A stretch of DNA of 48,476 nt from Nitrospirales bacterium. Lineage in GTDB: Bacteria > Nitrospirota > Nitrospiria > Nitrospirales > UBA8639. This document shows positions 6,624-41,460 of this stretch, piece after piece. Under the pieces are notes generated by a model. It worked only from the letters and a program-made list of their open reading frames with translations. It made no database searches and was not told the DNA's origin. Within the stretch, counting starts at the first letter, position 1, and each line of letters starts with the position of its first letter. The stretch spans positions 1 to 48,476 of the forward strand of contig JAJDBS010000161.1 in NCBI GenBank assembly GCA_029261235.1, in the 5' to 3' direction. The translations under genes were made by a program, and so were the position numbers.

Positions 6624-7475
6624 ATGTTCAGCAGGTCTAGGAACAAAGGTATACGTGCCGTCCAACCAAAAATGATGGTACTGGCACAACAAACTTCAAT
6701 GGTCGTAACGCGACATGCCTCACGCCTCACGCCTTCGGCCGGGTTCACACTTGTGGAAATGATTGGAGTTTTGGCGATTCTGGCAATTTTGGCCAGCTTC
6801 ATTACACCTAATGTCGTCAATCAATTACGGAGCGCACGACGAGATGCTGAGGATCAACAACTAGCCAATATCGCACAAGGGATCGAACTATTCCTCCGTC
6901 AAAACCGCTCATTTCCTGGAACCCTTTCAGCTCTCAGTCCTGACTTTGTAGCAACTTCGGTAGGACAACTCACGAATAACCCAAATGAATTTTTGCGCTA
7001 TTACTTTGTCCAACCGAATATCAGCGGCTATACAAACCCTGTTGGATTAGATCCTGGAAATCTAGCCGATTCACGATTTTTACTCATTACCAATTTAGAA
7101 GAAGATGCCGCCCCTACAATCACAACGGATACAGAATTCGAAAGCTGGTGGAATGTAGACGAAACTGGGACACCAAATCTCAAAATCCATCGTGGGCATG
7201 TTGGTAATTTGTTTCATCTGCTGAGTCTCTCAGCGGATGGGGCTGGAGGCAGTTACTCCGTCGATGGAACGTCTACGAATTCCAGTGGAGGCACCTTAGC
7301 TCCCCATATTCGTTACCACGTGGCGGGAACGCCTATTGCGCTGGATGAAGCCAATACGTTTGGAACAGCTGAAACTCAATTCACTATGGTCACAGAGGCG
7401 GGCTATCAATTTGATCCTGATTGTCCAAATGGATCCCAATGGCGAGTCATTAGCAGCGGATGTTACGCCCCGTAG
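6624..7475 (+). CDS. Prepilin, paralogue of the LamG prepilin
   Basis: A prepilin of about 283 aa. The processing site is SAG|FTLVEMIGVLAILAILASF with Glu at +5. The head domain shares blocks with the preceding prepilin (RYYFVQPNISGY, SRFLLITNLEEDAAPTITT, ESWW, the final FDPDC...GC pair) but stops where the LamG domain begins there. ATG 6624 has a good Shine-Dalgarno (AGGAGAG, 6608-6614), giving an unusually long leader of about 40 residues; ATG 6699 gives 15 residues and ATG 6579 is also open. Just before the cleavage site the DNA reads GCCTCACGCCTCACGCC (6717-6733), a half-copy of the dispersed repeat family, so part of the leader is repeat-derived. It is separated from the preceding gene by about 230 bp. 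Confidence 0.88.
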   Translation: MFSRSRNKGIRAVQPKMMVLAQQTSMVVTRHASRLTPSAGFTLVEMIGVLAILAILASFITPNVVNQLRSARRDAEDQQLANIAQGIELFLRQNRSFPGTLSALSPDFVATSVGQLTNNPNEFLRYYFVQPNISGYTNPVGLDPGNLADSRFLLITNLEEDAAPTITTDTEFESWWNVDETGTPNLKIHRGHVGNLFHLLSLSADGAGGSYSVDGTSTNSSGGTLAPHIRYHVAGTPIALDEANTFGTAETQFTMVTEAGYQFDPDCPNGSQWRVISSGCYAP

Positions 7476-15397: not shown

Positions 15398-17671
15398 ATG
15401 CATCCATTGCTCAAACGACAACTCAAACGCTTGGGGGCAACTGACACCACGATCCCCCTTTCCTCAGAACGTTGGGCACAACTCTTGGAGCGCGTCAACA
15501 ATGCTTATACTGAGGCCGATCAAGGGCGAGAACTACTAGAACGGTCACTCGCCCTTTCATCCAAAGAGATGCAGCAACTCTATGACAATCTCAGACTGAC
15601 AAGCGAGACACGCCTCAAAAACGAGCAGGAGCGGACGAAGATGATCGTGGACTCCGCTCTCGATGCAATTATTTCCGTGGATGAAGCCGGAATCATTATC
15701 GATTGGAATTCACAGGCCGAAATTTTATTTGGCTGGGCGAAAGAAGAAATCGTTGGGCAACCGGTCGCTGACATGATTATACCTCCAACATTTCGCGAGG
15801 GGCACAAACATGGCTTTCAACACTACTTAACAACCAGGCAGGGCACCATCCTCAACAAGCGTCTTGAACTCGTGGCTCTTAATCGAAAAGGAGACATATT
15901 CCCCATAGAGCTTTCGATCAACGCGTTCACAGTAGACGATACCACGGTCTTCAGTGCATTTATTCGCGACATCACCGAGCGAAAACACACGGAGAAAACC
16001 CTACGGAAAGCCAAAGAAGTCGCTGAGCATGCCGCAAAAGCCAAAAGCGAGTTTCTGGCCACCATGAGTCACGAAATCCGCACACCCATGAATGGCATTA
16101 TCGGAATGACCGGGCTGTTGTTGGATACGAGTCTGTCTTCCCAACAACATCAGTTTGCCGAAACCGTTCGCAGTTCGGGTGAAGCCCTGCTGACAATTAT
16201 CAATGATATTTTGGATTTCTCAAAAATCGAAGCTGGAAAGCTAGATTTTGAAATCATTGATTTCGATCTTCGTGTGGCCATGGAAGATACCTTGGACCTC
16301 TTAGCTGAAAAAGCTGAGAGTGCTCAATTGGAATTAGTTGGATACATGGACCCCAGCGTTCCTGCGCATCTGAAAGGTGACCCTGGTCGTTTTCGGCAGG
16401 TTTTGCTGAATCTGGTTGGTAATGCCATCAAATTTACGAAAAAAGGGGATGTGACCGCGCGTATTTCCTTGCTTGAGGAAACGAAAGACACCGCCACGAT
16501 TCGTGTGGCCGTCACCGACACAGGCATCGGGGTCGACCCGTCGGCTCAAGCGCACCTCTTTCAACCCTTTCAACAAGCCGACAGTTCCACCACCCGTCAA
16601 TTCGGTGGAACAGGGCTCGGCCTGGCTATTTCCAAAAAATTAGTCGAACAGATGGGTGGAACCATCGGCATCGATAGTCAGCTGGGTCAAGGCAGCACCT
16701 TTTGGTTTACCGCCCGCTACCTTAAACAATCCGAGCCCCCAAAGGCTCTGCCAACAATGGACCTCGACGGATTGCGTCTCTGTTGTATCGACAATCACCC
16801 CATCAATCGTCAACTCGTGGAAGAATATGCCAAAGCCTGGAACCTGCATACGATCTCTGTCTCTACGCCTACTGAAGGTCTCGAAGTACTCCTACGAGCC
16901 ATGGACAAAGAAGAGCCGTTCCACATCGCCATTGTCGATATGGAAATGCCAGATATGGATGGAGTGGCTTTGGCTCGTGTCATCAAAAGCAACCCTCAAT
17001 TGTCGGATACTCGTTTGATACTCTTATCGTCCATCGGGCAACGAGGAGATGCAAAGGAGGCCAAAGCTGCAGGGTTTTCAGGCTATCTGACCAAACCTAT
17101 TCGCCAGAATGTTCTGAAGCACACATTAGAGACGGTGATGGGCCTTGAGAGCGAGAACCTGGATCAGGTTGACACACCAGTCATCACCCGTTTTTCATCA
17201 TTAGAATCAGCAGAAATAGTCGGGCATCGAATCCTTGTCGTGGATGATCATCAAGTCAATCAACAATTAGCCGTCATGATGATTGAACGGCTCGGGCACC
17301 GAGTTCACGTCGCCGCCAATGGGCAGGAAGCCGTCGACGCCTTGAAGACCATCCCCTATGACCTGATCTTTATGGATTGCCATATGCCTGTCATGGATGG
17401 CTACGAAGCCACGAAAAAAATTCGTGAAGTAGAAAGCGTGAAACGTGAGGCGTTAGGCGTAAGGAGTGAAATACAAGAATCGAGATCGCCTGACGCTTTA
17501 CGCCTCACGTCTGTTCACATACCTATCGTGGCCATGACGGCAAACGTGATGCCACAGGATCGTGAAAAATGCCTACAGGCCGGAATGGATGACTATTTAA
17601 GCAAACCCATTCGCCCTGACGGACTTGTCCGAATATTTGCTAAATGGCTATCTGCCCATACCTCAAAATGA
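15398..17671 (+). CDS. Cytoplasmic hybrid histidine kinase (PAS-HisKA-HATPase-REC-REC), FIST partner
   Basis: A 757-aa kinase with no membrane segment. A basic N-terminal helix (MHPLLKRQLKRLG) and coiled coil (about 25-80) precede a PAS domain (about 85-200), HisKA (H225 in TMSHEIRTPMNG), HATPase (about 325-445; N box NLVGNAIKF, G boxes DTGIGV and GGTGLGL), REC1 (D514 in VDMEMPDMDG, K in YLTKPI) and REC2 (acidic pair in VVDDH, D660 in FMDCHMPVMDG, YLSKPI). It has no Hpt domain, unlike its two sister kinases here. REC2 carries an insertion of about 27 residues (about 679-705) encoded by a GTGAGGCG-family hairpin repeat. It presumably takes its signal from the FIST protein encoded just upstream. 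Confidence 0.9.
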   Translation: MHPLLKRQLKRLGATDTTIPLSSERWAQLLERVNNAYTEADQGRELLERSLALSSKEMQQLYDNLRLTSETRLKNEQERTKMIVDSALDAIISVDEAGIIIDWNSQAEILFGWAKEEIVGQPVADMIIPPTFREGHKHGFQHYLTTRQGTILNKRLELVALNRKGDIFPIELSINAFTVDDTTVFSAFIRDITERKHTEKTLRKAKEVAEHAAKAKSEFLATMSHEIRTPMNGIIGMTGLLLDTSLSSQQHQFAETVRSSGEALLTIINDILDFSKIEAGKLDFEIIDFDLRVAMEDTLDLLAEKAESAQLELVGYMDPSVPAHLKGDPGRFRQVLLNLVGNAIKFTKKGDVTARISLLEETKDTATIRVAVTDTGIGVDPSAQAHLFQPFQQADSSTTRQFGGTGLGLAISKKLVEQMGGTIGIDSQLGQGSTFWFTARYLKQSEPPKALPTMDLDGLRLCCIDNHPINRQLVEEYAKAWNLHTISVSTPTEGLEVLLRAMDKEEPFHIAIVDMEMPDMDGVALARVIKSNPQLSDTRLILLSSIGQRGDAKEAKAAGFSGYLTKPIRQNVLKHTLETVMGLESENLDQVDTPVITRFSSLESAEIVGHRILVVDDHQVNQQLAVMMIERLGHRVHVAANGQEAVDALKTIPYDLIFMDCHMPVMDGYEATKKIREVESVKREALGVRSEIQESRSPDALRLTSVHIPIVAMTANVMPQDREKCLQAGMDDYLSKPIRPDGLVRIFAKWLSAHTSK
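17434..17511. repeat. In-frame hairpin repeat inside REC2 of the FIST-partner kinase
   Basis: Left arm ACGTGAGGCGTTAGGCGT (17443-17460) opposes right arm CGCCTGACGCTTTACGCCTCACGT (17487-17510), whose reverse complement begins ACGTGAGGCGT. Translated in frame it reads VKREALGV...SPDALRLTS and sits between KKIRE and HIPIVAMTAN of the receiver. Confidence 0.8.
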
Positions 17672-18057
17672 GAAAAGCATAGAAGGCAATCGACATGTGT
17701 TGCCTCACTCCGCAACCCTCCCCTTTCATCTAACGCCTCACACAACAGTCAAGAATGGTTCAGCGTTAAGAACCAACGTCCAGAAACCGAGAAAACCGTG
17801 ATGGGCTGAATGTCTTCGAAGCGCAATGTCCAGACTGCCTGGCTAAGAAGTGTCGAGCTGAGAGAAATTCTCGTGTGAGATCCAAAAATTTCTCTTTAAT
17901 AGATCTTCCAATAACATTCGTGCCCTCGAGTCGAATAGGAGTGAATGCCGATAAAAAAATCCACTGACTCTGAAGAAAAACCAAATGAAACCCCATCCCT
18001 TCTTCCTATCTCCAGATATTCCTTCCATGAGGGATATTTCCCTTCTGAAAATCATAG
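17672..18057 (+). other. 386-bp spacer before the Amt-kinase gene
   Basis: No gene is seen. The 5' part (17697-17745) is pyrimidine-rich with GCCTCACTCCGC and AACGCCTCACAC, which look like degenerate right-arm pieces of the dispersed repeat family. The middle contains GAGAAATTCTC (around 17872-17882), a short palindrome. A promoter for the following gene is expected here, but I cannot point to convincing -35 and -10 boxes. Confidence 0.35.
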
Positions 18058-21000
18058 ATGCCAACTAGCTCCTCATTCCAACCCTTGACCTGGATGCTGA
18101 CCTGCACGGCGCTCATCTTGCTGATGCAAGCCGGGTTTACGTGTTTGGAGACCGGTCTGGTCCGAGCCAAAAACAGTATCAATGTGGCTATCAAAAATGT
18201 GGTGGATTTTTGCATCGCGTCGGTTATTTTCTGGGCGTTCGGGTACGGGTTGATGTTTGGGGACTCAGCGATGGGCTGGTTGGGCACCTCACGGTTTCTC
18301 TTTGATGGTGAGGCCAACAACCAGCTCTGGGCATTCTTTCTTTTTCAACTCACCTTTTGTGGCACCGCGACCACGATCATTTCTGGAGCCGTTGCCGAAC
18401 GGTTGCGCTTTAGTGGGTACTTACTCATTTCAGTCCTCATCAGTTCAGCGATTTATCCCATCATCGGGCATTGGATATGGGGTGGGAATGCTGAGGGCTC
18501 CTCGACCGGCTGGCTCAACCAGCTAGGGTTCATAGATTTTGCGGGAGCCACCGTCGTCCATTCCACTGCAGGGTGGGTCGCATTGGCAGCTATCCTGGTC
18601 ATTGGGCCACGACTTGGCCGGTTTGGCACAAGCGCGTTCACCATACAAGGGCACAATATCCCACTCTCAGCATTAGGTTTATTCTTAATATTTGTGGGAT
18701 GGATGGGATTCAATGGTGGCAGTGTGGTGCAAGACGCTCATAGCATCCCACTCGTCTTAGTCAATACGGTTTTATCAAGCGCAGCAGGTGGATTAGCCGC
18801 ATTGGCCTATGCATGGAGGACGACCGGGCGGCCAGATGTCAATTCAGTCATTAATGGCATCCTGGCGGGACTTGTCGCGATCACAGCCTCTGCGCCCTTC
18901 ATGACACCGGCAACCTCATTGTTGGTGGGAGCCGTAGGAGGACTCCTCTGTATCCTAGCCACACGAATCCTAGAACAGTGGCACATTGATGATGTGATTG
19001 GAGCCATCCCCGCTCACGCCTGCGCTGGAGTGTGGGGTGCACTCGCTGTCGCACTGCTGGGGAATATCGAGCTATGGGGAACGGGGCACGACCGCTTGAC
19101 CCAATTCGGCATACAACTCACTGGAGTCGTTGCCTGCTTCACATGGGCATTTGGATTCAGTTTTGTCATCTTGAAAGCCGTCAACAGACTCGTTCCCCTT
19201 CGGGTATCCGAGGATGAAGAACACTTGGGCTTGAATATGACAGAACATGGAGCCAGTACCGCGCACCTTGATCTGCTCGGCCAGATGGAAAGCCACCGAA
19301 CCCAGGGAGACTTCACTCGCTTGGTCGAAGTGGAACCGCATACGGAGGTTGGGCAAATCGCCACAGAATATAACCGGGTCTTGGACCGGGTTAACACAGA
19401 AACACATCAACGAGAGGACGCAATTCAGGCTCTTCGAGAGAGTCAGGAGGAAACTCGACTCATCATCGACCATGCCTTGGATGCAATTGTGACCATCGAT
19501 CAGGAAGGCAACATCACCGACTGGAATCCACAGGCAACCTTGATCTTTGGATGGCCAAAATCAGAAATATTGGGAGAGAGCTTTGGAGCCAAATTGCTCC
19601 ATTCCGATCATCAGACCGAACAAGAACACCAACTCAAATATTTCTTGGAAACCAAGCAGCAACATGTCGTAAATAAACGTCTCAAAATCCGAGGACTCCA
19701 TCGCAAAGGGCATGAGTTTCCCATGGAAGTGACCATGGTGCCATTGTTCAAACAGAACTCGTATTCATTTTGTGCGTTCATCAGAGATATTACCGAACAA
19801 CAACAAACTGAAGCGGCTCTCCGCCAAGAAACCACTCTGATGCAACTCATCCAACAGGTCGCCATTGCGGCCAACGAAGCTCAAACCGTCGATGGGGCTT
19901 TTCAGTCCAGCTTGGATCGGATTTGTGCATTTACCAAATGGCCGGTGGCCCATGTGTACTTCCGTAATGACGAGAAAACTTGTCAACTATCGCCTTCCCA
20001 ATTATGGCATTTGGACAATGCTCATGAATTCCAGACATTTAAGTCTCTCACTGAACAAACAGTATTTACCTCAGGAGTGGGGCTTCCAGGACGAGTATTA
20101 GCGCATGGCCGAGCGACATGGATTCCTGACATTACTCAGGACCTCAACTTCCCTCGGGCACAGATGGCAGGAGAGCTTGGGATTCGTGGTGGGTTCGCCT
20201 TTCCAGTTCTCATTGGGAACACCGTCATGGGTGTATTGGAATTTTTTTCGCGTGCTATTGAAACTCCCAATGCTCGCTTACTAGAAGTCATGGAAATCGT
20301 CGGGACGCAATTGGGACGGGTGCTTGAACGCAAACGAGGAGAGTTGGCGCGCGAGGAAAGCGATGCGCGGATCAGAGGAATTGTGGAAACGGCAGCTGAT
20401 GCCATTATTACCATTAATGAAACAGGGATCATCCAATCGTATAACAGCGCAGCCGAACGTGTATTTGGCTATTCAGCTCAGGAAGCCATTGCCCAGAATG
20501 TGTCCTTACTCATGCCTTCTCCATACCAAGAAGAACATGATAGTTACCTCGGACGATATCTTGATGGACAGTCTTCCACCATTTTTGGGAAAAGCCGAGA
20601 ATTAATAGGCAAACGAAAAGACGGCGCTAACTTTCCCATGGAACTCGCCGTGAGTGAAACCAAAGTGGGTACTCGTCGAACGTTCACTGGCATTGTTCGA
20701 GATATCAGTCAGCGCAAACAACACGAACAAGAACTTCGGGAAGCCAAAGAACATGCGGAATCAGCCGCCATAGCGAAAAGTCAGTTTCTAGCAACCATGA
20801 GCCATGAAATCCGAACACCCATGAACGGCGTGATTGGCATGACTGGCCTACTCTTGGAAACAGACCTTTCCACTCAACAACAACAGTTTGCCGAAACAGT
20901 TCGGCACTCAGGAGAGACGTTGCTGAAGATCATCAACGACATTTTGGACTTCTCGAAAATTGAAGCTGGAAAATTGGACTTCGAATTGATCCCGTTTGAT

Positions 21001-22791
21001 CTTCGAACCACGTTGGAAGAATCGCTGGAATTATTAGCAGAAGCCGCAGGGAAAAAATCCCTAGAACTCGTCGGCTTAGTGAACGCCAATGTTGCCACAG
21101 CTCTCCAAGGAGATCCAGGACGTTTGCGCCAGATATTTATAAATCTCACGGGGAATGCCATTAAGTTTACAACTCAAGGTGAAATCATTGTAAAAATTTC
21201 GTCCGTCGAAGAAACGCAGGACATGGTCGCCATTCGTGTGGACATTCATGATACTGGAGAAGGCATCCCCCACGATATTCTTCCAAAACTCTTTCGACCC
21301 TTCTCCCAAGCCGACAGTTCAACAACTCGGCGCCATGGTGGAACGGGGCTCGGTCTGGCTATCTGCAAACAACTTGTCAAACAAATGAATGGAGAGATTG
21401 GCGTTGAGAATCGAGTGGAAGGCGGGAGCACCTTTTGGTTTACAGCCCGGTTCGGGAAACAACCTCCAATGGCGATACCTCTCGCGCAAACACCTGTCGC
21501 CCTAGAAAACCTCCGCGTCTGCGCGGTAGACGATCATGTGACCAACCGGCAATTATTAGAACAATATTTTCAATATTGGAATATGGATGGGACATTAGTA
21601 GAAGACCCAAATGAGTGCTTAATCCTGATGCAAGAACAAGCCCAGAATGGTACACCATTCGACTTGGCTATCCTCGATATGGAAATGCCAAATATGGATG
21701 GGTTTACATTAGCCAAACACATCAAATCGGACAGCAATCTACGAGACACACATTTGGTCTTGCTGACTTCCCTCGGAAGACGAGGAGATGCCACCGCAGC
21801 CAAACAATCTGGATTTTCTGGCTATTTAACCAAGCCCATTCGGAAAAAGCAGCTCCAAGACTGCCTGGAAACCGTCATGGGACTACCCGTGTCGGCGACG
21901 TCGTCTCTTCCTCAACCCTTAGTCACTTCTCATTTCCTCAAAGACCTCCACCGCCAACAAGTCATTCGCATCTTGGTGGTAGACGACCATCAAGTGAATC
22001 AGCAATTAGGAGTCTTGATGGTCGAGCGGCTAGCATTTCGTGCGGATGTCGCAGGCAATGGACTTGAAGCCCTCGAAGCCCTTTCTCGTATTCCGTATGA
22101 CCTCATATTAATGGATTGCCAAATGCCAGAAATGGATGGCTATGAAGCCACAAAAAAGATTCGAGAGGCGGAAAGCGTGAGGCGCGAAACGCAAGAAAAA
22201 GTCTCGCCCGACGCTTCACCCCTCACGTCTCATCATGTCCCGATTATTGCCGTGACCGCCAATGCCATGCAGGGAGATCGGGAGAAATGCCTCCAAGCCG
22301 GTATGGACGATTACCTCAGCAAACCTATCCGCCCTGAGGAGTTATCCCAAATCCTTTCCAAATGGTTACCGAGATCAGAAACTCCTTCTTTCTCGAGCAT
22401 TGAACCAGTCGAAGCATATCCGTTGCCTTCCACAAATGAGGCGACCTCGCCTGAAGTCGTGAATCAGGAGACTCTGGAAGAATTGGAAATTCTTGGAGGA
22501 CGAGAATTTCTTCGCACGATGATTCAAAGTTTTGTGGAAGATGCTCTGAAGTGCGTCACACTCATTGAACAGGCGTTGGATAAGCAGGACCTGACGCAAA
22601 TCCAAGATACCGCTCACGGACTCAAAGGCATTTCTCGAAACATGGGAGCCACGGCCCTCGCCCAAATAGCATTGGACCTCGAGACTGCCTGCCAGGGTGA
22701 ACAGACGACAATCCCTCCTGCACTTCGCGATTCCATTCAGAATGTATTCCAAACCACTCGTCAGAATCTTGAGAAGACCTTAGAAGAATAA
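18058..22791 (+). CDS. Ammonium transporter-sensor kinase fusion (Amt-PAS-GAF-PAS-HisKA-HATPase-REC-REC-Hpt)
   Basis: A 1577-aa protein. Residues 1-405 are a complete Amt/Mep/Rh channel with about 11 membrane spans; both pore histidines are present (H168 in TVVHSTAG, H320 in AHACAGVWG), with the DFAG aspartate and GFNGGS. A HAMP-like linker (about 405-460), PAS (464-581), GAF (591-761) and PAS (771-886) lead to HisKA (H916), HATPase (about 1010-1135), REC1 (D1207), REC2 (D1353) and Hpt (H1520 in AHGLKGISRN). Amt-kinase fusions such as Ks-Amt5 of the anammox bacterium Kuenenia are ammonium sensors; here the output is a full phosphorelay. REC2 carries the hairpin-repeat insertion (about 1372-1391). 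The start matches Amt N-termini but lacks a visible Shine-Dalgarno. Confidence 0.93.
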   Translation: MPTSSSFQPLTWMLTCTALILLMQAGFTCLETGLVRAKNSINVAIKNVVDFCIASVIFWAFGYGLMFGDSAMGWLGTSRFLFDGEANNQLWAFFLFQLTFCGTATTIISGAVAERLRFSGYLLISVLISSAIYPIIGHWIWGGNAEGSSTGWLNQLGFIDFAGATVVHSTAGWVALAAILVIGPRLGRFGTSAFTIQGHNIPLSALGLFLIFVGWMGFNGGSVVQDAHSIPLVLVNTVLSSAAGGLAALAYAWRTTGRPDVNSVINGILAGLVAITASAPFMTPATSLLVGAVGGLLCILATRILEQWHIDDVIGAIPAHACAGVWGALAVALLGNIELWGTGHDRLTQFGIQLTGVVACFTWAFGFSFVILKAVNRLVPLRVSEDEEHLGLNMTEHGASTAHLDLLGQMESHRTQGDFTRLVEVEPHTEVGQIATEYNRVLDRVNTETHQREDAIQALRESQEETRLIIDHALDAIVTIDQEGNITDWNPQATLIFGWPKSEILGESFGAKLLHSDHQTEQEHQLKYFLETKQQHVVNKRLKIRGLHRKGHEFPMEVTMVPLFKQNSYSFCAFIRDITEQQQTEAALRQETTLMQLIQQVAIAANEAQTVDGAFQSSLDRICAFTKWPVAHVYFRNDEKTCQLSPSQLWHLDNAHEFQTFKSLTEQTVFTSGVGLPGRVLAHGRATWIPDITQDLNFPRAQMAGELGIRGGFAFPVLIGNTVMGVLEFFSRAIETPNARLLEVMEIVGTQLGRVLERKRGELAREESDARIRGIVETAADAIITINETGIIQSYNSAAERVFGYSAQEAIAQNVSLLMPSPYQEEHDSYLGRYLDGQSSTIFGKSRELIGKRKDGANFPMELAVSETKVGTRRTFTGIVRDISQRKQHEQELREAKEHAESAAIAKSQFLATMSHEIRTPMNGVIGMTGLLLETDLSTQQQQFAETVRHSGETLLKIINDILDFSKIEAGKLDFELIPFDLRTTLEESLELLAEAAGKKSLELVGLVNANVATALQGDPGRLRQIFINLTGNAIKFTTQGEIIVKISSVEETQDMVAIRVDIHDTGEGIPHDILPKLFRPFSQADSSTTRRHGGTGLGLAICKQLVKQMNGEIGVENRVEGGSTFWFTARFGKQPPMAIPLAQTPVALENLRVCAVDDHVTNRQLLEQYFQYWNMDGTLVEDPNECLILMQEQAQNGTPFDLAILDMEMPNMDGFTLAKHIKSDSNLRDTHLVLLTSLGRRGDATAAKQSGFSGYLTKPIRKKQLQDCLETVMGLPVSATSSLPQPLVTSHFLKDLHRQQVIRILVVDDHQVNQQLGVLMVERLAFRADVAGNGLEALEALSRIPYDLILMDCQMPEMDGYEATKKIREAESVRRETQEKVSPDASPLTSHHVPIIAVTANAMQGDREKCLQAGMDDYLSKPIRPEELSQILSKWLPRSETPSFSSIEPVEAYPLPSTNEATSPEVVNQETLEELEILGGREFLRTMIQSFVEDALKCVTLIEQALDKQDLTQIQDTAHGLKGISRNMGATALAQIALDLETACQGEQTTIPPALRDSIQNVFQTTRQNLEKTLEE
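22176..22227. repeat. In-frame hairpin repeat inside REC2 of the Amt-kinase
   Basis: Left arm CGTGAGGCGCGAAACGC (22176-22192) opposes GACGCTTCACCCCTCACG (22210-22227), pairing at about 14 of 17 positions. The translation is SVRRETQEKVSPDASPLTS, at the same place in the receiver as in the two sister kinases. Confidence 0.75.
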
Positions 22792-23076
22792 TAAAAGAGA
22801 GGTGATTCGTCACTCCTCGTGTATTTGCCTTCCCCTAATCAGTCCCCACCAATTTTCATTCCTCAGTTCCTCTCACACATTCTCTTATATGTAGGGCTTT
22901 CACAGTTGCGGCTACGCCTCTGCATATTAAGTCTCAACTTCTAAAAACCGACAAAAATATTAGGAAAAACAAGGTTAGGCCCCTATTCCAGATCTCATCC
23001 TCGATTGCCGAAATTGGCAAGGGGAAACGGTCTATCTAATCAAGATGACGTTAGTCGACAGTACTCGGAGGAATTC
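22792..23076 (+). other. Leader region of the TonB-receptor operon
   Basis: An imperfect hairpin with a TTCG loop (GAGGTGA-TTCG-TCACTCC, about 22800-22817) just after the Amt-kinase stop may end that transcript, though no T run follows. Nearer the receptor gene, TTGCC and GGCAA (about 23007-23022) form a small stem followed by GGGGAAACGG. I do not recognise a known riboswitch consensus here. Confidence 0.3.
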
Positions 23077-25089
23077 ATGATAGACAATTCTCAGACACGA
23101 TATTTCCCTCAGCAAACCTGGCAACGTACCGTGAGAATAGGATTAACGACTCTACTGTTAATCTTCATAAGCGGGACTGCCTCCGGTGAGGATTTTGATC
23201 CTTCTTCAAACACAGACTTGACCGAACTCAGCTTGGAAGAACTCATGTCGGTGGAAGTTACATCTGTGTCGAAGAAAAAGCAAAAATTATCGGAATCCGC
23301 TGCAGCCATTTTTGTGATCACACAAGAAGACATTCGTCGATCGGGCGTCACAAGTATTCCAGAAGCACTCCGCATGGTTCCAGGCATACAAGTGGCACGA
23401 AGCAGTAATAATCAATGGAACATAAGTGCCAGAGGTTTCAATGAACGATTCACCAATAAATTGCTGGTCCTCATCGATGGCCGAACCGTCTACAACCCGT
23501 TATTTGCTGGAGTGACCTGGGAAACTCAAGACACCATGCTGGAAGACATTGAGCGCATCGAAGTGATCCGAGGCCCTGGCGGAGCACTCTGGGGTGTGAA
23601 TGCCGTGAATGGCGTCATCAATATCATCACGAAGCACACTCAGGATACACAGGGACTTTTAGTCAGCGGGGTCGCCGGAACCGAGGAAGGCATTGTGTCG
23701 GTCAGACAAGGGGGGAGTCATGGCTCAGATTTTCAATATCGATTGTTTGCCAAATACTTCAATCGAGATACGAGCTTTAACGCAGTAGGAGCCCATGATG
23801 ACACACGCATGTTCCGCAGTGGATTTCGCACGGATTGGCAACCGGCCACGCAAGATCATGTGATGGTTCAAGGAGAGCTCTATACCGGCGATGGTGGGCA
23901 GCAAAGTACGGTAGCCACGACCAGAACGTTTCCTTATGCATTTACCCTGGGCAACGAAGACCTTGAAATGTCAGGAGGGCATTTTCTCACACGTTGGGAG
24001 CATACCTGGGATTCCGGATCGGATATGGCACTACAATTTTTCTACGATCGTTATGAGCGAAGCGAAAACACGGTAAAAGCGACCATTGATACATTCGATG
24101 TGGACTTCCAACATCGATTCGAGTTCTTGAGCAATCAAGAACTCCTTTGGGGATTCGAGTATCGCTATTGGATGGACGACCTGCAGAATACTGCTGGGAC
24201 ATCAGTGTTCCCTGATGCTCAATCCTTCAATTTAGTCAGTGGCTTTCTCCAAGACGAAATCACGCTCATTCCAGATACCTTCATCGTCACCATTGGCACG
24301 AAACTCTCACACAACCATTTTACCGGATTTGAATATCAACCCAGCGGACGGTTTCTCTGGACACCCGCGGATGGTCATAGTCTGTGGGGAGCCGTTTCTC
24401 GCGCCGTCCGTGTTCCGTCTCGCTTGGAAGACAACATCCTCCTCACCCTTCCAGCGAATAGTACGACACCCTTCCCGACTTTAGTCAGAGGAAACCAGAG
24501 CTTCAAATCCGAAGAGCTCTTAGCGTTTGAAGTTGGGTACCGACTCAATACGTTTGAATGGATCACATTTGACATCACAGGATTCTACAATCAATACGAC
24601 AATATTCGTGGCACCAGAGTCATCAGCCTAGCCCCTCCGACTGGGACGCTCGAAAATAATTTAGAAGTGGACAGCCTTGGAGTAGAGCTCGCCAGTGACA
24701 TTCAACTGCAAGATTGGTGGCGAATCCGTGGGGCCTATACGTATATCAACATGTGGGTGGAAGGCCCAATTAATACTGCCCTCAGCACAACAGGCAGAGG
24801 CACACCACACCATCAAGGATCCATACGTTCCTTGATGACACTCCCCTATCAAGTAGAATTCGATTCATGGTTGCGCATTTCGGATAATATCCCTGCTCCA
24901 AACATTGCCGGATATATTGACTTGGATCTTCGCCTTGGCTGGAAGCCATGGCCGAATCTTGATCTGTCACTGGTTGGGCAAAACCTCTTAGATAACCATC
25001 ATCCAGAAGCGGCGCCTTCACTGTTCTTAGCGACACAACCGACTGAAGTCCAACGCAGTGTGTATGGAAAACTGACATGGAGTTATTAA
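23077..25089 (+). CDS. TonB-dependent outer-membrane receptor
   Basis: A 670-aa protein. The signal peptide spans about residues 15-38 (RIGLTTLLLIFISGTASG). A TonB-box-like segment and the plug follow (LSLEELMSVEVTSVSKKKQK, SAAAIFVITQEDIRRSG, IPEALRMVPGIQVARS, RGFNERFTNKLLVLIDGRTV, IERIEVIRGPGGALWGVNAV, GVINIITK), then a beta-barrel rich in aromatic residues ending in LTWSY, with a terminal aromatic as required for barrel assembly. ATG 23077 follows GGAGG (23067-23071) and is preferred to the upstream frame opening at 23005. Its ligand cannot be read from sequence. The next two genes (YfiR-like and a CHASE8 kinase) suggest that it signals rather than only imports. Confidence 0.92.
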   Translation: MIDNSQTRYFPQQTWQRTVRIGLTTLLLIFISGTASGEDFDPSSNTDLTELSLEELMSVEVTSVSKKKQKLSESAAAIFVITQEDIRRSGVTSIPEALRMVPGIQVARSSNNQWNISARGFNERFTNKLLVLIDGRTVYNPLFAGVTWETQDTMLEDIERIEVIRGPGGALWGVNAVNGVINIITKHTQDTQGLLVSGVAGTEEGIVSVRQGGSHGSDFQYRLFAKYFNRDTSFNAVGAHDDTRMFRSGFRTDWQPATQDHVMVQGELYTGDGGQQSTVATTRTFPYAFTLGNEDLEMSGGHFLTRWEHTWDSGSDMALQFFYDRYERSENTVKATIDTFDVDFQHRFEFLSNQELLWGFEYRYWMDDLQNTAGTSVFPDAQSFNLVSGFLQDEITLIPDTFIVTIGTKLSHNHFTGFEYQPSGRFLWTPADGHSLWGAVSRAVRVPSRLEDNILLTLPANSTTPFPTLVRGNQSFKSEELLAFEVGYRLNTFEWITFDITGFYNQYDNIRGTRVISLAPPTGTLENNLEVDSLGVELASDIQLQDWWRIRGAYTYINMWVEGPINTALSTTGRGTPHHQGSIRSLMTLPYQVEFDSWLRISDNIPAPNIAGYIDLDLRLGWKPWPNLDLSLVGQNLLDNHHPEAAPSLFLATQPTEVQRSVYGKLTWSY

Positions 25090-25182
25090 TCGCCCCACGG
25101 CCTAGCAGTGATGATTGGCCAACATCCTACCATGACAGTCCGGCTCTTGATGCCTGAGCTGTCGTTGATTGCACGCTTCTCC

Positions 25183-25743
25183 ATGATGCACAGACCTCAT
25201 CGTTCATTGCACGTGTTCCTGGTTATCGTGATCACGTTGAGCTATCTGTTCTGGAATCCAGAACGCAGCCAGGCCGAGGCGCCAAGGGAATATCAGGTCA
25301 AAGCCGCGTTTCTGTATCACTTTGCCACCTTTGTGGATTGGCCCTCCTCCACATTCAAGGACACCAAGGACCATCTTCGTATCTGCATTGTGGGAAAAGA
25401 TCCATTCGGGGAAAATCTCGAGGCCACGCTACGTGCGAAAAAAATTGGCGAGCACCCTCTTGAAATTCACCGTAATCCCCGCCAATCAACATTGAAACTG
25501 TGTCATGTACTGTACGTCACCGCATCGCGGTCATCGCAACTGCGGACCTACCATCAACAACACGGCAACGCAAACGTGTTGACGGTAGGAGAAAACGACA
25601 CCTTCATGCAGCATGGCGGCATGATCAAATTCTTCATGGATGATCATAAAGTACGGTTTGCCATCAACCCTGATGCCATCAATAAAACGAAGCTGAAAGT
25701 CAGCTCGAAATTGCTGCGTCTCGCCAAAATTATTACCCCATAA
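25183..25743 (+). CDS. Periplasmic YfiR-family protein
   Basis: A protein of about 186 aa from ATG 25183. A signal peptide (HRSLHVFLVIVITLSYLFW...AEA) is followed by the YfiR domain (DUF4154): EYQVKAAFLYHFATFVDWP, LRICIVGKDPFGENLEATL, CHVLYVTASRSSQL, NVLTVGENDTFMQHGGMIKF and NPDAINKTKLKVSSKLLRLAK. In Pseudomonas, YfiR is a periplasmic repressor of the CHASE8-GGDEF protein YfiN. Here the gene lies between a TonB receptor and a CHASE8 histidine kinase. An open frame begins at 25108 (GTG/ATG), but starting at 25183 gives a normal signal peptide. Neither start has a clear Shine-Dalgarno. Confidence 0.88.
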   Translation: MMHRPHRSLHVFLVIVITLSYLFWNPERSQAEAPREYQVKAAFLYHFATFVDWPSSTFKDTKDHLRICIVGKDPFGENLEATLRAKKIGEHPLEIHRNPRQSTLKLCHVLYVTASRSSQLRTYHQQHGNANVLTVGENDTFMQHGGMIKFFMDDHKVRFAINPDAINKTKLKVSSKLLRLAKIITP

Positions 25744-25748
25744 AAACG

Positions 25749-28700
25749 ATGCCATTTTCCTGGACACCAAAAATCGTTCAACGAATGCCTCTCAAGAGGA
25801 AGTTCCTCTTGATCGTGCTGCTCACGTCTGGGCTAAGCCTTCTATTCGCTTGTACCGTTTTGGTGGTCAATGACTTACTCGAATTTAGAGAATCGCTCGT
25901 CAAAGAGCTCACGGACCAGGCCGGCTTAGTTGGCGAAAGCAGCTCAGCAGCGCTGGTGTTCAATGACCAAGAAACCGCGCAAGAAATTGTCTCGGCCTTC
26001 CAGCATCAATCGAACATTCTTCAAGCCATACTCCTGACTCCCAAAGGGGACGTACTCGCGCAATACCAACCTGGACCGATTCCAGAATTCAGAAACACAT
26101 CGAACCAAATGACGACGATGGTCTCGTGGGAATCCGTGGAAATCTTCCGCCCCATCATCTTCAACCAGGAGCATGTCGGCTCCCTCTATGTCCAATCCAA
26201 TCTACAAACCATGTATGAACACCTCGAGGGCCTTCTCAAAGTCATGATTGCCGCCATGATCATATCGGGCCTCTTGGCACTATTCATTTCATCACGACTC
26301 CAACAAGCCATCCTCAGTCCATTGGTCAACCTCACAAACGTGGCCACACGTATTTCTCAGAGTCAAGATTATTCCTTACGCGCCCCCATGCATGTCCCAG
26401 ATGAAATCGGAACGTTGATCGATGGGTTCAATGTCATGCTGCAAGAAATTCAGAACCGAGACAGCGAACTGGAAGAACATCGTTCCCATTTATCAGACAT
26501 GATCACCGAACGCACCAATGATCTCATGAACACCAACGTCCTCCTTCATAAGGAAATCACTGAACGAGAACGCGACGGCCAGGAAATTACCAATATGGCC
26601 ACAGACCTACAGAAGAAGAATGATGAATTGGCTGTATCGCGCGACGCAGCCCTCCAAGCCGCTAAGGCGAAAGCTGAGTTCTTGGCCACCATGAGCCATG
26701 AAATTCGTACACCAATGAATGGCGTCATCGGCATGACCAACTTGTTAATAGATACGACTCTCACGAACGAGCAGCAGTACTTAGCCAACACCGTACGCAC
26801 GTCAGCTGAAGCACTCCTGACACTCTTGAACGACATTCTTGATTTCTCAAAAATTGAGTCGGGAAAACTTGAACTGGAGTCCATTGATTTCGATGTGAAC
26901 ACCACATTGGAAGATACACTTGATTTACTCGCCGAACGAGCGTCTCACAAACAGGTGGAATTAACAGGCGTCGTGTTTCCTGATGTGCCCACGAGACTGA
27001 AAGGTGATCCCGGGCGCATTCGCCAAATTCTCTTGAATTTAGTTGGCAACGCGATCAAATTTACAAAGCAAGGCGAAGTCAGCGTTCAGGTCTTGTTCAT
27101 GGAATCATCCGAGTCGAAAATCGAGCTGCAAGTGCATGTCTGGGATACCGGAATCGGCATCGCCCCACACGTCAAAGACAAACTCTTCCACGCCTTTACC
27201 CAAGCCGATAGCTCCACGACCAGAGAATATGGTGGCACAGGATTAGGATTAGCCATTTGCAAACAACTCGTGGAACTGATGGATGGTCAAATTGGCGTAG
27301 AAAGCCAGCGTGGAGAATGGAGTTTATTTTGGTTTTCGGTGACATTAGAAAAAGCCGCTGCAACCACTCAGACAGAATGGCTGCCTCGACCTGACCTTCA
27401 GGGTCTCCGAGTCTTATGTATGGATCAAAATCCCACAAGTTTATTCCTGTTGGAATCTTATGCCAAATCCTGGGGCATGGTCGTCCAGACAACGGCGAAC
27501 ACGCACGACTGTCTCCCCATTCTCCAAAACGCCATGGCCTCTGGCCATCCGTTTGATGTCGCTATTGTGGATCGCGGCATGTCTAAGGTAGACGGCCTCA
27601 AGCTAGGGCAACTGATCAAACAACACCCGGACGTGGCTCAGACCAAACTTCTGCTCCTCACCTCAATCGGCCAACGTGGAGAAGCGGCAACAGCCCATGA
27701 GGCTGGGTTTGCCGGCTATCTCACCAAACCCATACATAAGCTGCAACTGCATGATGGGTTAGCCACAGTCATGGGATACTGTTTCACCGAAAATCCCAAA
27801 CAGGCACGGCCATTAGTCACGCGACATACCCTCAAAGAAACACAACGACGATCTCGCGATAAAATCCTGGTGGCTGACGACCATGCCATCAACCAGCAAC
27901 TCATTGTCTTACTCCTTGAGCGCCTCGGGTATGGATCTGACGTCGTGAGCACTGGACGAGAAGCCATCCAAGCGGTAGCAACCGAATCGTATGCCCTCGT
28001 GCTCATGGACTGCCAAATGCCAGAAATGGACGGATTTGCAGCCACGAGGAAGATTCGAGAAGCGGAAGTCGTAAGGCGTGAAGCGTTAGGCGAAAAAGAC
28101 GAAACACACAAAACACAATCGCCTGACGCTTTACCCCTTACGCCTAACGACGCGCTTCGAATTCCAATTGTGGCTTTGACCGCCAATGCCATGCCTGGCG
28201 ACAGAGAAAAATGCTTAGCAGCAGGAATGGACGATTACCTTACGAAACCTATCCGCCCTGAAGAATTGGCTCTGGTCCTGGAACGTTGGCTTCCAGAATA
28301 TCCTGCAACCACACACCAGGATTCACTCCTTGAGAAAGATCACCCTATCGATAGAGCAGAAGAACAGAATACTACCAGCGCGAATGATCTTGGCGACCAA
28401 GAAATTGAAACACCTTCCCCCATCGATTCATCGAGGCTGCAGGAATGGCAAGAGCTTGGTGGAACAGAATTTGTCAGTCGCATGGCAGAACAATTTGTCA
28501 CGGATGCCACGAATTGTACTCAGGCCATCACACAAGCACTCGATCAACAAGACGTCAATGAATTGGCAGAAGCCGCTCACGGACTAAAAGGAATTTGCGC
28601 CAATATTGGCGCAACACAGCTCCACCAAATAGCCATCAACATTGAGCAAGCCCTTCGAGCAGGGGAAAAGGTCGACTCCGAGGAAACCACGAAATCACTA

Positions 28701-28760
28701 GAAATAGCCCTCGCTCAAATCACCAACCACCTTGCGACCCTCCAGGCGCCTCAGCAATAA
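25749..28760 (+). CDS. CHASE8-HAMP hybrid histidine kinase with REC-REC-Hpt, YfiR partner
   Basis: A 1003-aa protein. A first membrane helix (about 18-40), a periplasmic CHASE8-like domain (about 45-150; SSSAALVFNDQETAQEIVSA, IFRPIIFNQEHVGSLYV) and a second helix (about 158-180) precede HAMP (about 180-235), a coiled coil, HisKA (H317), HATPase (about 415-535), REC1 (D608), REC2 (D754) and Hpt (H944 in AAHGLKGICANIG). The layout imitates the YfiR-YfiN pair, with a phosphorelay kinase replacing the diguanylate cyclase. REC1 is unusual: MSKVDG replaces the normal MPxMDG and the acidic pocket reads CMDQN. REC2 has the hairpin-repeat insertion (about 773-801). It starts 6 bp after the YfiR stop. 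Confidence 0.92.
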   Translation: MPFSWTPKIVQRMPLKRKFLLIVLLTSGLSLLFACTVLVVNDLLEFRESLVKELTDQAGLVGESSSAALVFNDQETAQEIVSAFQHQSNILQAILLTPKGDVLAQYQPGPIPEFRNTSNQMTTMVSWESVEIFRPIIFNQEHVGSLYVQSNLQTMYEHLEGLLKVMIAAMIISGLLALFISSRLQQAILSPLVNLTNVATRISQSQDYSLRAPMHVPDEIGTLIDGFNVMLQEIQNRDSELEEHRSHLSDMITERTNDLMNTNVLLHKEITERERDGQEITNMATDLQKKNDELAVSRDAALQAAKAKAEFLATMSHEIRTPMNGVIGMTNLLIDTTLTNEQQYLANTVRTSAEALLTLLNDILDFSKIESGKLELESIDFDVNTTLEDTLDLLAERASHKQVELTGVVFPDVPTRLKGDPGRIRQILLNLVGNAIKFTKQGEVSVQVLFMESSESKIELQVHVWDTGIGIAPHVKDKLFHAFTQADSSTTREYGGTGLGLAICKQLVELMDGQIGVESQRGEWSLFWFSVTLEKAAATTQTEWLPRPDLQGLRVLCMDQNPTSLFLLESYAKSWGMVVQTTANTHDCLPILQNAMASGHPFDVAIVDRGMSKVDGLKLGQLIKQHPDVAQTKLLLLTSIGQRGEAATAHEAGFAGYLTKPIHKLQLHDGLATVMGYCFTENPKQARPLVTRHTLKETQRRSRDKILVADDHAINQQLIVLLLERLGYGSDVVSTGREAIQAVATESYALVLMDCQMPEMDGFAATRKIREAEVVRREALGEKDETHKTQSPDALPLTPNDALRIPIVALTANAMPGDREKCLAAGMDDYLTKPIRPEELALVLERWLPEYPATTHQDSLLEKDHPIDRAEEQNTTSANDLGDQEIETPSPIDSSRLQEWQELGGTEFVSRMAEQFVTDATNCTQAITQALDQQDVNELAEAAHGLKGICANIGATQLHQIAINIEQALRAGEKVDSEETTKSLEIALAQITNHLATLQAPQQ
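28071..28147. repeat. In-frame hairpin repeat inside REC2 of the CHASE8 kinase
   Basis: Left arm GTAAGGCGTGAAGCGTTAGG (28071-28090, continuing CG) opposes a right arm from CGCCTGACGCTTTACC (28120) through TTACGCCTAACG. About 19 of 22 positions can pair around a loop of about 27 nt. The translation reads VVRREALGE...SPDALPLTP. Confidence 0.8.
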
Positions 28761-39056: not shown

Positions 39057-39165
39057 ACCGTGAGGCGTCAGGCGTATAGCGGTTCGAAAAACATCCTCTT
39101 GTCTTTTACTCTTCACCGCTATTCCCATTCTCGCCCCCTCCTCACGCCTTACCCCTGACGTTTCA
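39057..39165. repeat. Dispersed hairpin repeat, copy between convergent genes
   Basis: Left arm ACCGTGAGGCGTCAGGCG (from 39057) opposes CTCCTCACGCCTTACCCCTG (39138-39157, continuing ACG). The loop of about 55 nt includes ACTCTTCACCGC. It lies between the ends of the HD-GYP-like gene (+) and the small hypothetical gene (-), so it could end transcription from both sides. Confidence 0.75.
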
Positions 39166-39537
39166 TGGCTTGGTAGTTATTCCCCAACCAAAACAATTGC
39201 GTATTCGGTGAAGCCAAGAGAGTGTCGGGATTACTTCCGGTTCGGGATCTGGATAATCCACCCAGAGCTCCTGATTACCTAAATATTGCTCGCCTTGGAA
39301 AATGCGTTGTGTCCGCAATTGCGAATAGCCTCGCTCCTGAAGAATCAGGACCACACGCTGCAGGGCCTCTTCTTCTGTCAACGAAGACTCCACGTCAATT
39401 TGCAACGCTTCATACCGCAACCGTGCCTGATATGCGGTTCCTTGACCGATCACGTGGACTTGGCGATTGAAGCCACGCTCTCGATCATCTAATCCAGAAA
39501 CATGATGGACGTTCGTTATTGAAGATGGTGATTCCAT
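39163..39537 (-). CDS. Small hypothetical protein
   Basis: A 124-aa protein of unknown family. It is soluble, with no signal peptide or membrane helix. A beta-strand-like start (FNRQVHVIGQGTAYQARLRY) is followed by a helix (SLTEEEALQRVVLILQERG) and YSQLRTQRIFQGEQYLG, then a strand ELWVDYPDPE. An AAGGGTAG Shine-Dalgarno precedes the ATG. It is transcribed divergently from nhaB across a 160-bp gap and its 3' end touches a hairpin repeat. No function is proposed. Confidence 0.65.
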   Translation of the reverse strand: MESPSSITNVHHVSGLDDRERGFNRQVHVIGQGTAYQARLRYEALQIDVESSLTEEEALQRVVLILQERGYSQLRTQRIFQGEQYLGNQELWVDYPDPEPEVIPTLSWLHRIRNCFGWGITTKP

Positions 39538-41289: not shown

Positions 41290-41290
41290 G

Positions 41291-41356
41291 GCGTGAGGCG
41301 TGAGGCGTGAGGCGTGAGGCGTGAGGCGTGAGGCGTGAGGCGTGAGGCGTGAGGCG
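41291..41356. repeat. Tandem heptamer repeat, 9.4 copies of GCGTGAG
   Basis: Sixty-six bases of perfect GCGTGAG units start one base after the nhaB TAA. The unit is the same word that forms the left arm of the dispersed hairpin repeats, so this copy appears to have expanded by slippage. Confidence 0.97.
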
Positions 41357-41460
41357 ATAAAAGAGTAAGAAGGGTGAAGTGCAAAGTAAAGAGTGATATG
41401 AAGGAAGCAGGTCATTGCCCCCTTCCTTCTTACTACTTACTTCTATCTCCTCACCTCTGG
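41357..41460. repeat. Inverted-repeat region between convergent nhaB and OmpA-like genes
   Basis: AGTAAGAAGG (41364-41373) pairs with CCTTCTTACT (41425-41434), and GAAGGAAG (41400-41407) pairs with CTTCCTTC (41422-41429). A CTCCTCACC word near 41448 can oppose the upstream GTGAGG units. The alternative pairings overlap, so only one can form at a time. Together with the tandem repeat this makes a long structured 3' region shared by two convergent genes, a plausible bidirectional terminator. Confidence 0.65.

What the first reader, a model, noticed from the sequence alone, without database searches (positions are those of the whole stretch)
17434..28150. Hairpin repeats inserted in frame at the same site of the last receiver domain in three sister kinases
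Copies at 17434-17511, 22176-22227 and 28071-28147 are opposed-arm GTGAGGCG-family hairpins lying within coding sequence. Each falls in the alpha3-beta4 loop of REC2, between K(K)IRE and (H/R)(I/V)PI(V/I)A of the receiver, and each encodes a VxRRE...SPDAxxLTS-like peptide of about 20-29 residues. The same repeat family also occurs between genes in this window. The kinases differ widely at silent sites, so either an old insertion was kept while copies diverged and continued to exchange with the repeat family, or insertion hit the same site repeatedly. A mobile or amplifying non-coding hairpin turned into a receiver-domain loop is unusual. It could change partner choice, mRNA structure or translation pausing.
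Basis: partly seen in the sequence, partly recalled or inferred. Interest (0 to 1): 0.8.

Follow-up and report, generated by a model that had tools for sequence, protein, structure and literature searches.

The report
Genomic repeats refill kinase receiver loop
One small loop in bacterial signalling kinases is repeatedly filled, in frame, with seven-letter DNA repeats of the kind scattered through that bacterium's own genome, so non-coding repeat DNA keeps becoming protein at the same spot.

Summary
Confirmed and extended. Three hairpins lie in frame in the alpha3-beta4 loop of the last receiver domain of three hybrid kinases. They are built from 7-nt units (GTGAGGC-like). The first copy matches an intergenic hairpin elsewhere in the genome in both arms (48 of 51 bases); DNA beside the loops is 63-73% identical between sister kinases. 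Loop DNA repeats at lags 7, 14 and 21, flanks do not; in 57 of 103 loops (8 of 11 tested in this genome) synonymous recoding does not reproduce it. In other Nitrospirales the same loop carries other heptads (ACGAGCG, TTTCGAG) that are dispersed in those genomes; in a deltaproteobacterial genome and its unnamed relatives it carries AAAGCTC, CAACTCG or AATCATC. Loops are more alike within a genome than receiver relatedness predicts. In one orthologue pair the loop was replaced between 95%-identical flanks. Most likely a permissive loop harbours copies of spreading heptad repeats and is refreshed by exchange. The hairpin looks secondary: substitutions mostly break pairs. How the repeats move, and whether the loop does anything, is not shown. 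Closest known kinds: in-frame Rickettsia palindromic elements and heptameric simple repeats.

The parts
15398..17671 (+). hybrid histidine kinase 1 (PAS, HisKA, HATPase, receivers; 757 aa)
17426..17518 (+). heptad-hairpin loop of the last REC, EVESVKREALGVRSEIQESRSPDALRLTSVH
   Evidence: matches the intergenic copy in L007 in both arms; replaced relative to the G005 orthologue L071
18058..22791 (+). ammonium-transporter-fused hybrid kinase (Amt, PAS, GAF, HisKA, HATPase, receivers, Hpt; 1577 aa)
22165..22236 (+). heptad-hairpin loop of the last REC, EAESVRRETQEKVSPDASPLTSHH (aligned with a 7-residue gap, 3 heptads, against the first)
25749..28760 (+). hybrid histidine kinase 3 (CHASE8, HAMP, HisKA, HATPase, receivers, Hpt; 1003 aa)
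28059..28160 (+). heptad-hairpin loop of the last REC, EAEVVRREALGEKDETHKTQSPDALPLTPNDALR
39059..39171 (.). intergenic opposed arms of the same heptads (39059-39087 and 39140-39171)
   Evidence: each found as partner of another copy; between ORFs
41290..41366 (.). GTGAGGC tandem array directly after the stop codon of the NhaB gene, between convergent genes
6704..6742 (+). heptads in the reading frame of a prepilin-like protein directly before the G|FTLVE site

Best explanation
The loops are copies of a genome-wide family of non-coding repeats made of 7-nt units, often as two opposed arms, that settled in a permissive protein slot, the alpha3-beta4 loop of a receiver domain of hybrid kinases. 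The slot lies away from the phospho-acceptor end of the fold (recalled REC architecture), so a stop-free peptide of about 20-40 residues is tolerated: in the model it lengthens helix alpha3 and then forms a flexible loop. Copies are inherited with the kinase, but are now and then overwritten or resized by exchange with other copies and by gain or loss of heptads; since 7 is not a multiple of 3, only changes that restore the frame keep the protein whole. Lineages fill the slot with a repeat that is dispersed in their own genome. Shown: 7-nt periodicity, position, match to dispersed repeats, excess likeness within a genome, one loop replacement, one 7-nt difference with loss of frame. Inferred: the copying mechanism (recombination or template switching between heptads) and near-neutrality of the peptide.
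For: Lag 7/14/21 identity in 47 g1 loops .448/.409/.372 against .239/.248/.268 in REC flanks; ten other lags .25-.29 in these loops. Lag 7 is reached by at most 3 of 300 synonymous recodings in 57 of 103 loops, 8 of 11 tested here. Whole-genome 15-mer matches against the reversed-pattern control: GTGAGGC 99 v 4 here; ACGAGCG 98 v 6 in G049, 66 v 6 in G047, 2 v 6 here; TTTCGAG 49 v 5 in G031. In loops, GTGAGGC occurs in 6 of 11 here and 6 of 9 in G005; ACGAGCG only in g5/g14 loops; TTTCGAG only in f3 loops; reversed controls 0 for these three. At equal REC-body identity loops are more alike within a genome; permutations reaching the excess: 2 of 2000 within g1. Both arms match an intergenic hairpin, 48 of 51, counted by eye on the alignment. 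L001/L071: flanks 95%, loop 64% with 12 gaps. Arrays: 2 of 24 inside ORFs in 448 kb of this genome, 82% coding. AlphaFold: alpha3 61-81, residues 81-100 pLDDT 55-66, the other blocks 88-98 except the last, 73. Other heptads in the slot in G059, G070, G071: 0 or 1 of 500 recodings as periodic, 11 loops; one parsed G070 loop is short.
Against: 46 of 103 loops show no signal at 1%, among them all 5 of genera g12/13/15. G007, same genus, has no heptad arrays in 400 kb yet loops of 24-39 aa, 1 of 5 passing at 1%. The match is not exclusive: AATCATC is dispersed here (43 v 3) and in G049 (30 v 0) but is in none of the loops at two mismatches, and G031 also has 67 v 5 GTGAGGC matches. GTGAGAA, 95 v 15 in this genome, is in 6 loops, but so is its reversed control. 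G047 has 66 v 6 ACGAGCG matches but 0-3 arrays in a 400 kb sample. In G031, 9 of 24 arrays fall inside mechanically called ORFs. Six of 7 orthologue loops between G000 and G005 have no gaps. Loop-to-sample BLAST put the own genome first in only 14 of 31 loops (flanks 9 and 11). Silent sites in the loop diverge less than in flanks (pS .14 v .34; 0 of 20000 flank window sets as low), which neutrality does not predict.
Confidence: 0.76

Rival explanations
1. One ancient insertion, kept while kinases duplicated and diverged, with no later exchange.
For: Six of 7 orthologous loops between G000 and G005 align without gaps.
Against: Other heptads at the same site in other genera and in a deltaproteobacterial genome; same-genome excess; loop replaced between L001 and L071; REC orthologue candidates 85-92% identical with and without heptads in genus g7 (L058 against L057, L061, L062).
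Confidence: 0.08
2. The loop is born in place by slippage on the R-E-A-E codons of alpha3 (CGTGAAGC resembles a heptad), and likeness to intergenic repeats is coincidence or base composition.
For: The majority sequence of the loop start continues the alpha3 codons in 7-nt steps in g1, g3, g5 and g14 (read by eye); one 7-nt difference.
Against: Both arms match an intergenic hairpin; TTTCGAG, AAAGCTC and AATCATC do not resemble those codons yet are dispersed in their own genomes.
Confidence: 0.1
3. The heptads are a contingency switch: gain or loss of one 7-nt unit shifts the frame and turns the phosphorelay kinase off and on.
For: A G010 REC of the Amt-kinase type lacks exactly one heptad against its G012 counterpart and is out of frame, with the frame open further on (L147 against L041; Amt fusion of either not checked); silent sites slow; heptad phase variation in Haemophilus HMW1A (PMC8262952, search listing only).
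Against: Units are imperfect, which should slow slippage; one allele in a draft genome; no population data.
Confidence: 0.12
4. Selected mRNA hairpin (pausing, stability).
For: Window hairpins fold better than nearly all synonymous recodings.
Against: 14 of 103 loops pass at 1%; 14 of 47 changed stem pairs kept over 12 directed comparisons; G070/G071 loops have heptads with next to no fold.
Confidence: 0.06
5. Transposase-driven MITE or REP-type element with target preference for this site.
For: Opposed arms and dispersed copies.
Against: No fixed length seen; Y1 transposase (PF01797) does not follow the repeats in 20 genomes: G047 0 hits with 66 heptad matches, G007 4 hits without heptad arrays. 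Other transposases not searched.
Confidence: 0.12

Closest known systems
Rickettsia palindromic elements (RPE) and Wolbachia protein-coding palindromes
   Same: Palindromic repeats found between genes and in frame within genes, adding a peptide that the protein tolerates (passages read in PMC10969869 and PMC2229807; Wolbachia only as a cited title there).
   Different: RPE are about 105-150 bp families in many unrelated genes; here the window loops are 72-102 nt, built of 7-nt units, of different families in different lineages, and centred on one loop of one domain.
Heptameric simple sequence repeats (GGGAATC in Xanthomonas, GGGGAYT in Nostoc, TAACTGA in Beggiatoaceae)
   Same: 7-nt units dispersed over the genome, mostly non-coding (passages read in PMC4692102 and PMC4679880).
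   Different: Here often opposed arms, and a recurrent in-frame home in a receiver domain. The first of these papers studies G-quadruplexes, which was not examined here.
REP/REPIN elements with TnpA-REP
   Same: Short dispersed palindromes (search listings of PMC3733652 and PMC8266576 only).
   Different: No link to Y1 transposase distribution; end tags of REPs were not looked for.
Long alpha3-beta4 loop of a cytokinin-receptor REC
   Same: A larger alpha3 and longer alpha3-beta4 loop in StHK4 (passage read in PMC10779265).
   Different: No repeat origin in the passages seen.

Membership tests
Rickettsia palindromic element-like | repeat present both between genes and in frame inside genes | tested here: met
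Rickettsia palindromic element-like | element of about 105-150 bp | tested here: not met
   loops 72-102 nt in the window; lengths vary widely elsewhere
Rickettsia palindromic element-like | insertion in many unrelated genes | tested here: inconclusive
   2 of 24 arrays inside ORFs in 448 kb of this genome, one prepilin leader and one REC loop; but 9 of 24 in G031, ORFs not verified
heptameric simple sequence repeat | tandem 7-nt units | tested here: met
heptameric simple sequence repeat | over-represented outside genes | tested here: met
   22 of 24 arrays outside ORFs in this genome, 25 of 29 in G049, 15 of 24 in G031, 3 of 3 in G047
heptameric simple sequence repeat | changes by whole units | tested here: inconclusive
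   one 7-nt difference; a 7-aa gap between loops; period 7 in loop lengths not above other periods
MITE | terminal inverted repeats | tested here: inconclusive
   opposed arms in many but not all copies
MITE | target-site duplication | not tested
   no empty-site pairs were aligned
REP/RAYT | associated Y1 transposase | tested here: not met
   17 of 20 genomes have PF01797, but its number does not follow repeat number
REC domain (Response_reg) | Pfam match and receiver fold | tested here: met

The most novel reading that the evidence does not exclude
The alpha3-beta4 loop of receiver domains is a convergent harbour, in at least two bacterial phyla, for lineage-specific heptad repeats that spread by an undescribed copying process with a 7-nt step; loop turnover in phosphorelay kinases, with occasional frame-shifting heptad loss, makes this a source of new loop peptides and possibly of on/off variation in sensing.
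Probability: 0.3. Interest if true: 0.88.

Novelty: new variant of a known kind. Interest (0 to 1): 0.74.

Why it matters
It is a natural record of non-coding repeat DNA being turned into protein at one structural position with several different repeat families, so the rules (frame, stop avoidance, tolerance) can be read directly. It also points to dispersed 7-nt-unit repeats that differ by lineage and whose means of spread is unknown, and gives sites at which to study it.

Tried and rejected
Rfam at gathering scores: no match in the window. Loop-to-genome BLAST as a test of the genome match was weak (14 of 31). GTGAGAA as a second loop family in this genus rests on inspection of single loops (L016, L093): counted over all loops it does not exceed its reversed control, so it is not claimed. 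Period 7 in loop lengths: not above other periods, although 27 of 81 lengths fall in one class mod 7. Hairpin conservation: not supported. Y1 transposase link: not supported. Stop avoidance: of 18 tandem GTNAR units read with TNA as a codon, 17 are TTA, 1 TCA, none TAA/TGA, against 29 T of 246 in the genome sample; partly forced by taking open frames, and loops are related, so only a description. Literature: 9 searches of an open-access library showed no listing that describes heptads in receiver loops; passages of five papers were read, none whole. The PDB fold search (first 50 of 604 matches at E 0.001 shown) gave receiver domains; their loops were not compared.

Rows dropped: one search failed from a pattern error and was redone, where 3 of 130 loci (L096, L117, L147) did not fit; 127 rows gave 118 distinct RECs, 103 with loops of 18 aa or more. 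The loci are the best-scoring ones of a capped list, so fractions are not population estimates. In one search, 19 of 80 RECs were not parsed. The replaced pair L001/L071 was left out of the silent-site counts. The permutation for other f1 genera (0 of 2000) mixes genera, so only the g1 test separates genome from genus. CAACTCG was not counted genome-wide.

Full report
WHAT WAS CHECKED. The three hairpins exist where stated and lie inside open frames of hybrid histidine kinases of 757, 1577 and 1003 aa; the second is fused to an ammonium transporter. They fold at z -5.2, -2.9 and -6.4 against dinucleotide shuffles, and 4, 4 and 0 of 300 synonymous recodings fold as well. The loops run from the codon after I-R of alpha3 to beta4: 17426-17518, 22165-22236 and 28059-28160. 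An AlphaFold model of the first (30-row alignment, mean pLDDT 88.7) keeps the receiver fold, with alpha3 at residues 61-81, low-confidence blocks 81-90 and 91-100 (55 and 66) and beta4 at 103-107; the best structural matches are receiver domains.

THE UNIT IS A HEPTAD. In 47 loops of the window's genus (20 aa or more), identity at lag 7, 14 and 21 is .448.409 and .372, while REC DNA on either side has .239.248 and .268; ten other lags lie at .25-.29 in these loops. Genera g3, g5, g14 and family f3 give .477.424.474 and .392 at lag 7 with flanks at .22-.26. Seven is not a multiple of three, so this is not a protein repeat: in 57 of 103 loops lag 7 is reached by at most 3 of 300 synonymous recodings: 34 of 47 in g1, 3 of 5 in g3, 10 of 21 in g5, 6 of 9 in g14, 4 of 16 in f3, 0 of 5 in three other genera. 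In the window's genome 8 of 11 tested loops pass; the twelfth REC hit had a 16-aa loop and was not tested. The hairpin passes the same control in 14 of 103.

LOOP AND GENOME SHARE REPEATS. Whole-genome counts of 15-mers (two mismatches) against the reversed pattern: GTGAGGC 99 against 4 in this genome and 167 against 1 in G005; ACGAGCG 98 against 6 in G049, 66 against 6 in G047, 38 against 6 in G042, but 2 against 6 here; TTTCGAG 49 against 5 in G031. With the same rule on the 103 loops, GTGAGGC is in 6 of 11 loops here and 6 of 9 of G005 and in single loops or a few of other family-f1 genomes; ACGAGCG is in 6 loops, all of g5 or g14; TTTCGAG in 5, all of f3; their reversed controls are in none. 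Not every dispersed heptad reaches the loop: AATCATC is dispersed here (43 against 3) but in no loop, G031 also has many GTGAGGC matches (67 against 5), and GTGAGAA (95 against 15 here) is in 6 loops but so is its reversed control. In 400 kb samples, heptad arrays are present in G000, G031 and G049, rare in G047 (0-3) and absent in G007. For 103 loops compared pairwise, at REC-body identity of 45-70% the mean loop score is .21-.24 within a genome.18 within a genus and .13-.14 between genera, while above 80% identity (orthologues) it is .42. Within g1, 2 of 2000 label permutations reach the same-genome excess. A direct BLAST of loops to samples was less clear: own genome best in 14 of 31, flanks 9 and 11 of 31.

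DIRECT LINK TO AN INTERGENIC COPY. The loop at 17426-17518 aligns with a hairpin on another contig (L007, place C241:4056) in both arms, 26 of 27 and 22 of 24 bases; the two differ mainly in the hairpin's end loop. Ungapped DNA beside the loops is 63-73% identical between the three window kinases.

HOW IT CHANGES. Of seven orthologue pairs between G000 and G005, six loops align without gaps. In the seventh, the window's first kinase, flanks are 95% identical and the loop 64% with 12 gaps: it was replaced. In genus g7, RECs 85-92% identical differ in having heptads or not. A G010 REC like that of the Amt-kinase has 86 nt of loop where its G012 counterpart has 93, lacking one heptad, and runs into TGA, with the frame open further on; it is a draft genome. 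Loop dN/dS is .41 against .14 in the flanks, but silent sites in the loop diverge less (pS .14 against .34; none of 20000 sets of flank windows as low). I have no explanation for that. Of 47 changed stem pairs in 12 directed comparisons, 14 are kept, so RNA pairing is not what is maintained.

BEYOND THE ORDER. Of the 80 best RECs of a capped scan of named genomes, Nitrospira included, 61 were parsed and 51 of these have loops of 7-11 residues. One record titled Deltaproteobacteria (genome G059) has an AAAGCTC hairpin at the same site; two more RECs of that genome have nearly the same loop, so this may be one event duplicated, and the first receiver of the same protein has a CAACTCG loop instead. 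Its unnamed relatives G070 and G071 have AATCATC/AATCAAC heptads in both receivers of one reading frame, in three kinases. For the 11 heptad loops of these three genomes 0 or 1 of 500 recodings are as periodic; one parsed G070 loop is short. Dispersed counts: AAAGCTC 99 against 35 in G059, no excess in G070; AATCATC 65 against 10 in G059, 76 against 0 in G070, 32 against 1 in G071.

A SECOND SLOT. Arrays are scarce in genes here: 2 of 24 inside ORFs in 448 kb (82% coding), 4 of 29 in G049, but 9 of 24 in G031, whose ORFs I did not verify. The one here that is not a REC loop, and one in G031 and two in G049, lie just before the processing site of prepilin-like proteins (1 of 3, 1 of 3 and 2 of 7 motif hits), in the part that would be cut off (start codons not proven). 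That fits the view that such repeats last where the peptide does no harm.

READING. The best account is a dispersed heptad repeat that occupies a permissive loop, inherited with the kinase and refreshed by exchange, with lineages using different repeats. What is not shown is how repeats spread: Y1 transposase numbers do not follow them. Whether the loop is neutral, tunes the kinase or switches it by 7-nt loss is open. The nearest known kinds are RPE (in-frame palindromes) and heptameric simple repeats; it differs from RPE in length and, here, in the genes occupied, and adds to heptameric repeats a recurrent coding site. Nine searches of an open-access library listed no paper describing it.

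Noticed in passing
6704-6742; L193 5271-5342; L222 17671-17773 and 19189-19281: Heptad repeats in frame directly before the G|FTLVE site of prepilin-like proteins, in three genomes; other prepilin-like motifs in the same samples lack them.
   Followed up: partly
41290-41366: Array of GTGAGGC directly after the stop codon of an NhaB Na+/H+ antiporter gene, between convergent genes.
   Followed up: no
18058-22791: Ammonium transporter fused to PAS, GAF, histidine kinase, receivers and Hpt in one 1577-aa protein.
   Followed up: no
L147 (G010), REC on the reverse strand: Counterpart of an L041-like REC with one heptad fewer, out of frame with TGA; a real off allele or a draft error.
   Followed up: partly
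loops of six G000/G005 orthologue pairs: Silent sites in the loop diverge about 2.4 times less than in flanks although amino-acid change is not reduced; unexplained.
   Followed up: partly
L332 (G059): Two receivers of one reading frame carry two different heptads in the same loop (CAACTCG, then AAAGCTC).
   Followed up: partly
G000 whole genome: AATCATC heptads are dispersed in this genome too (43 against 3 in the control) but are absent from its receiver loops.
   Followed up: no
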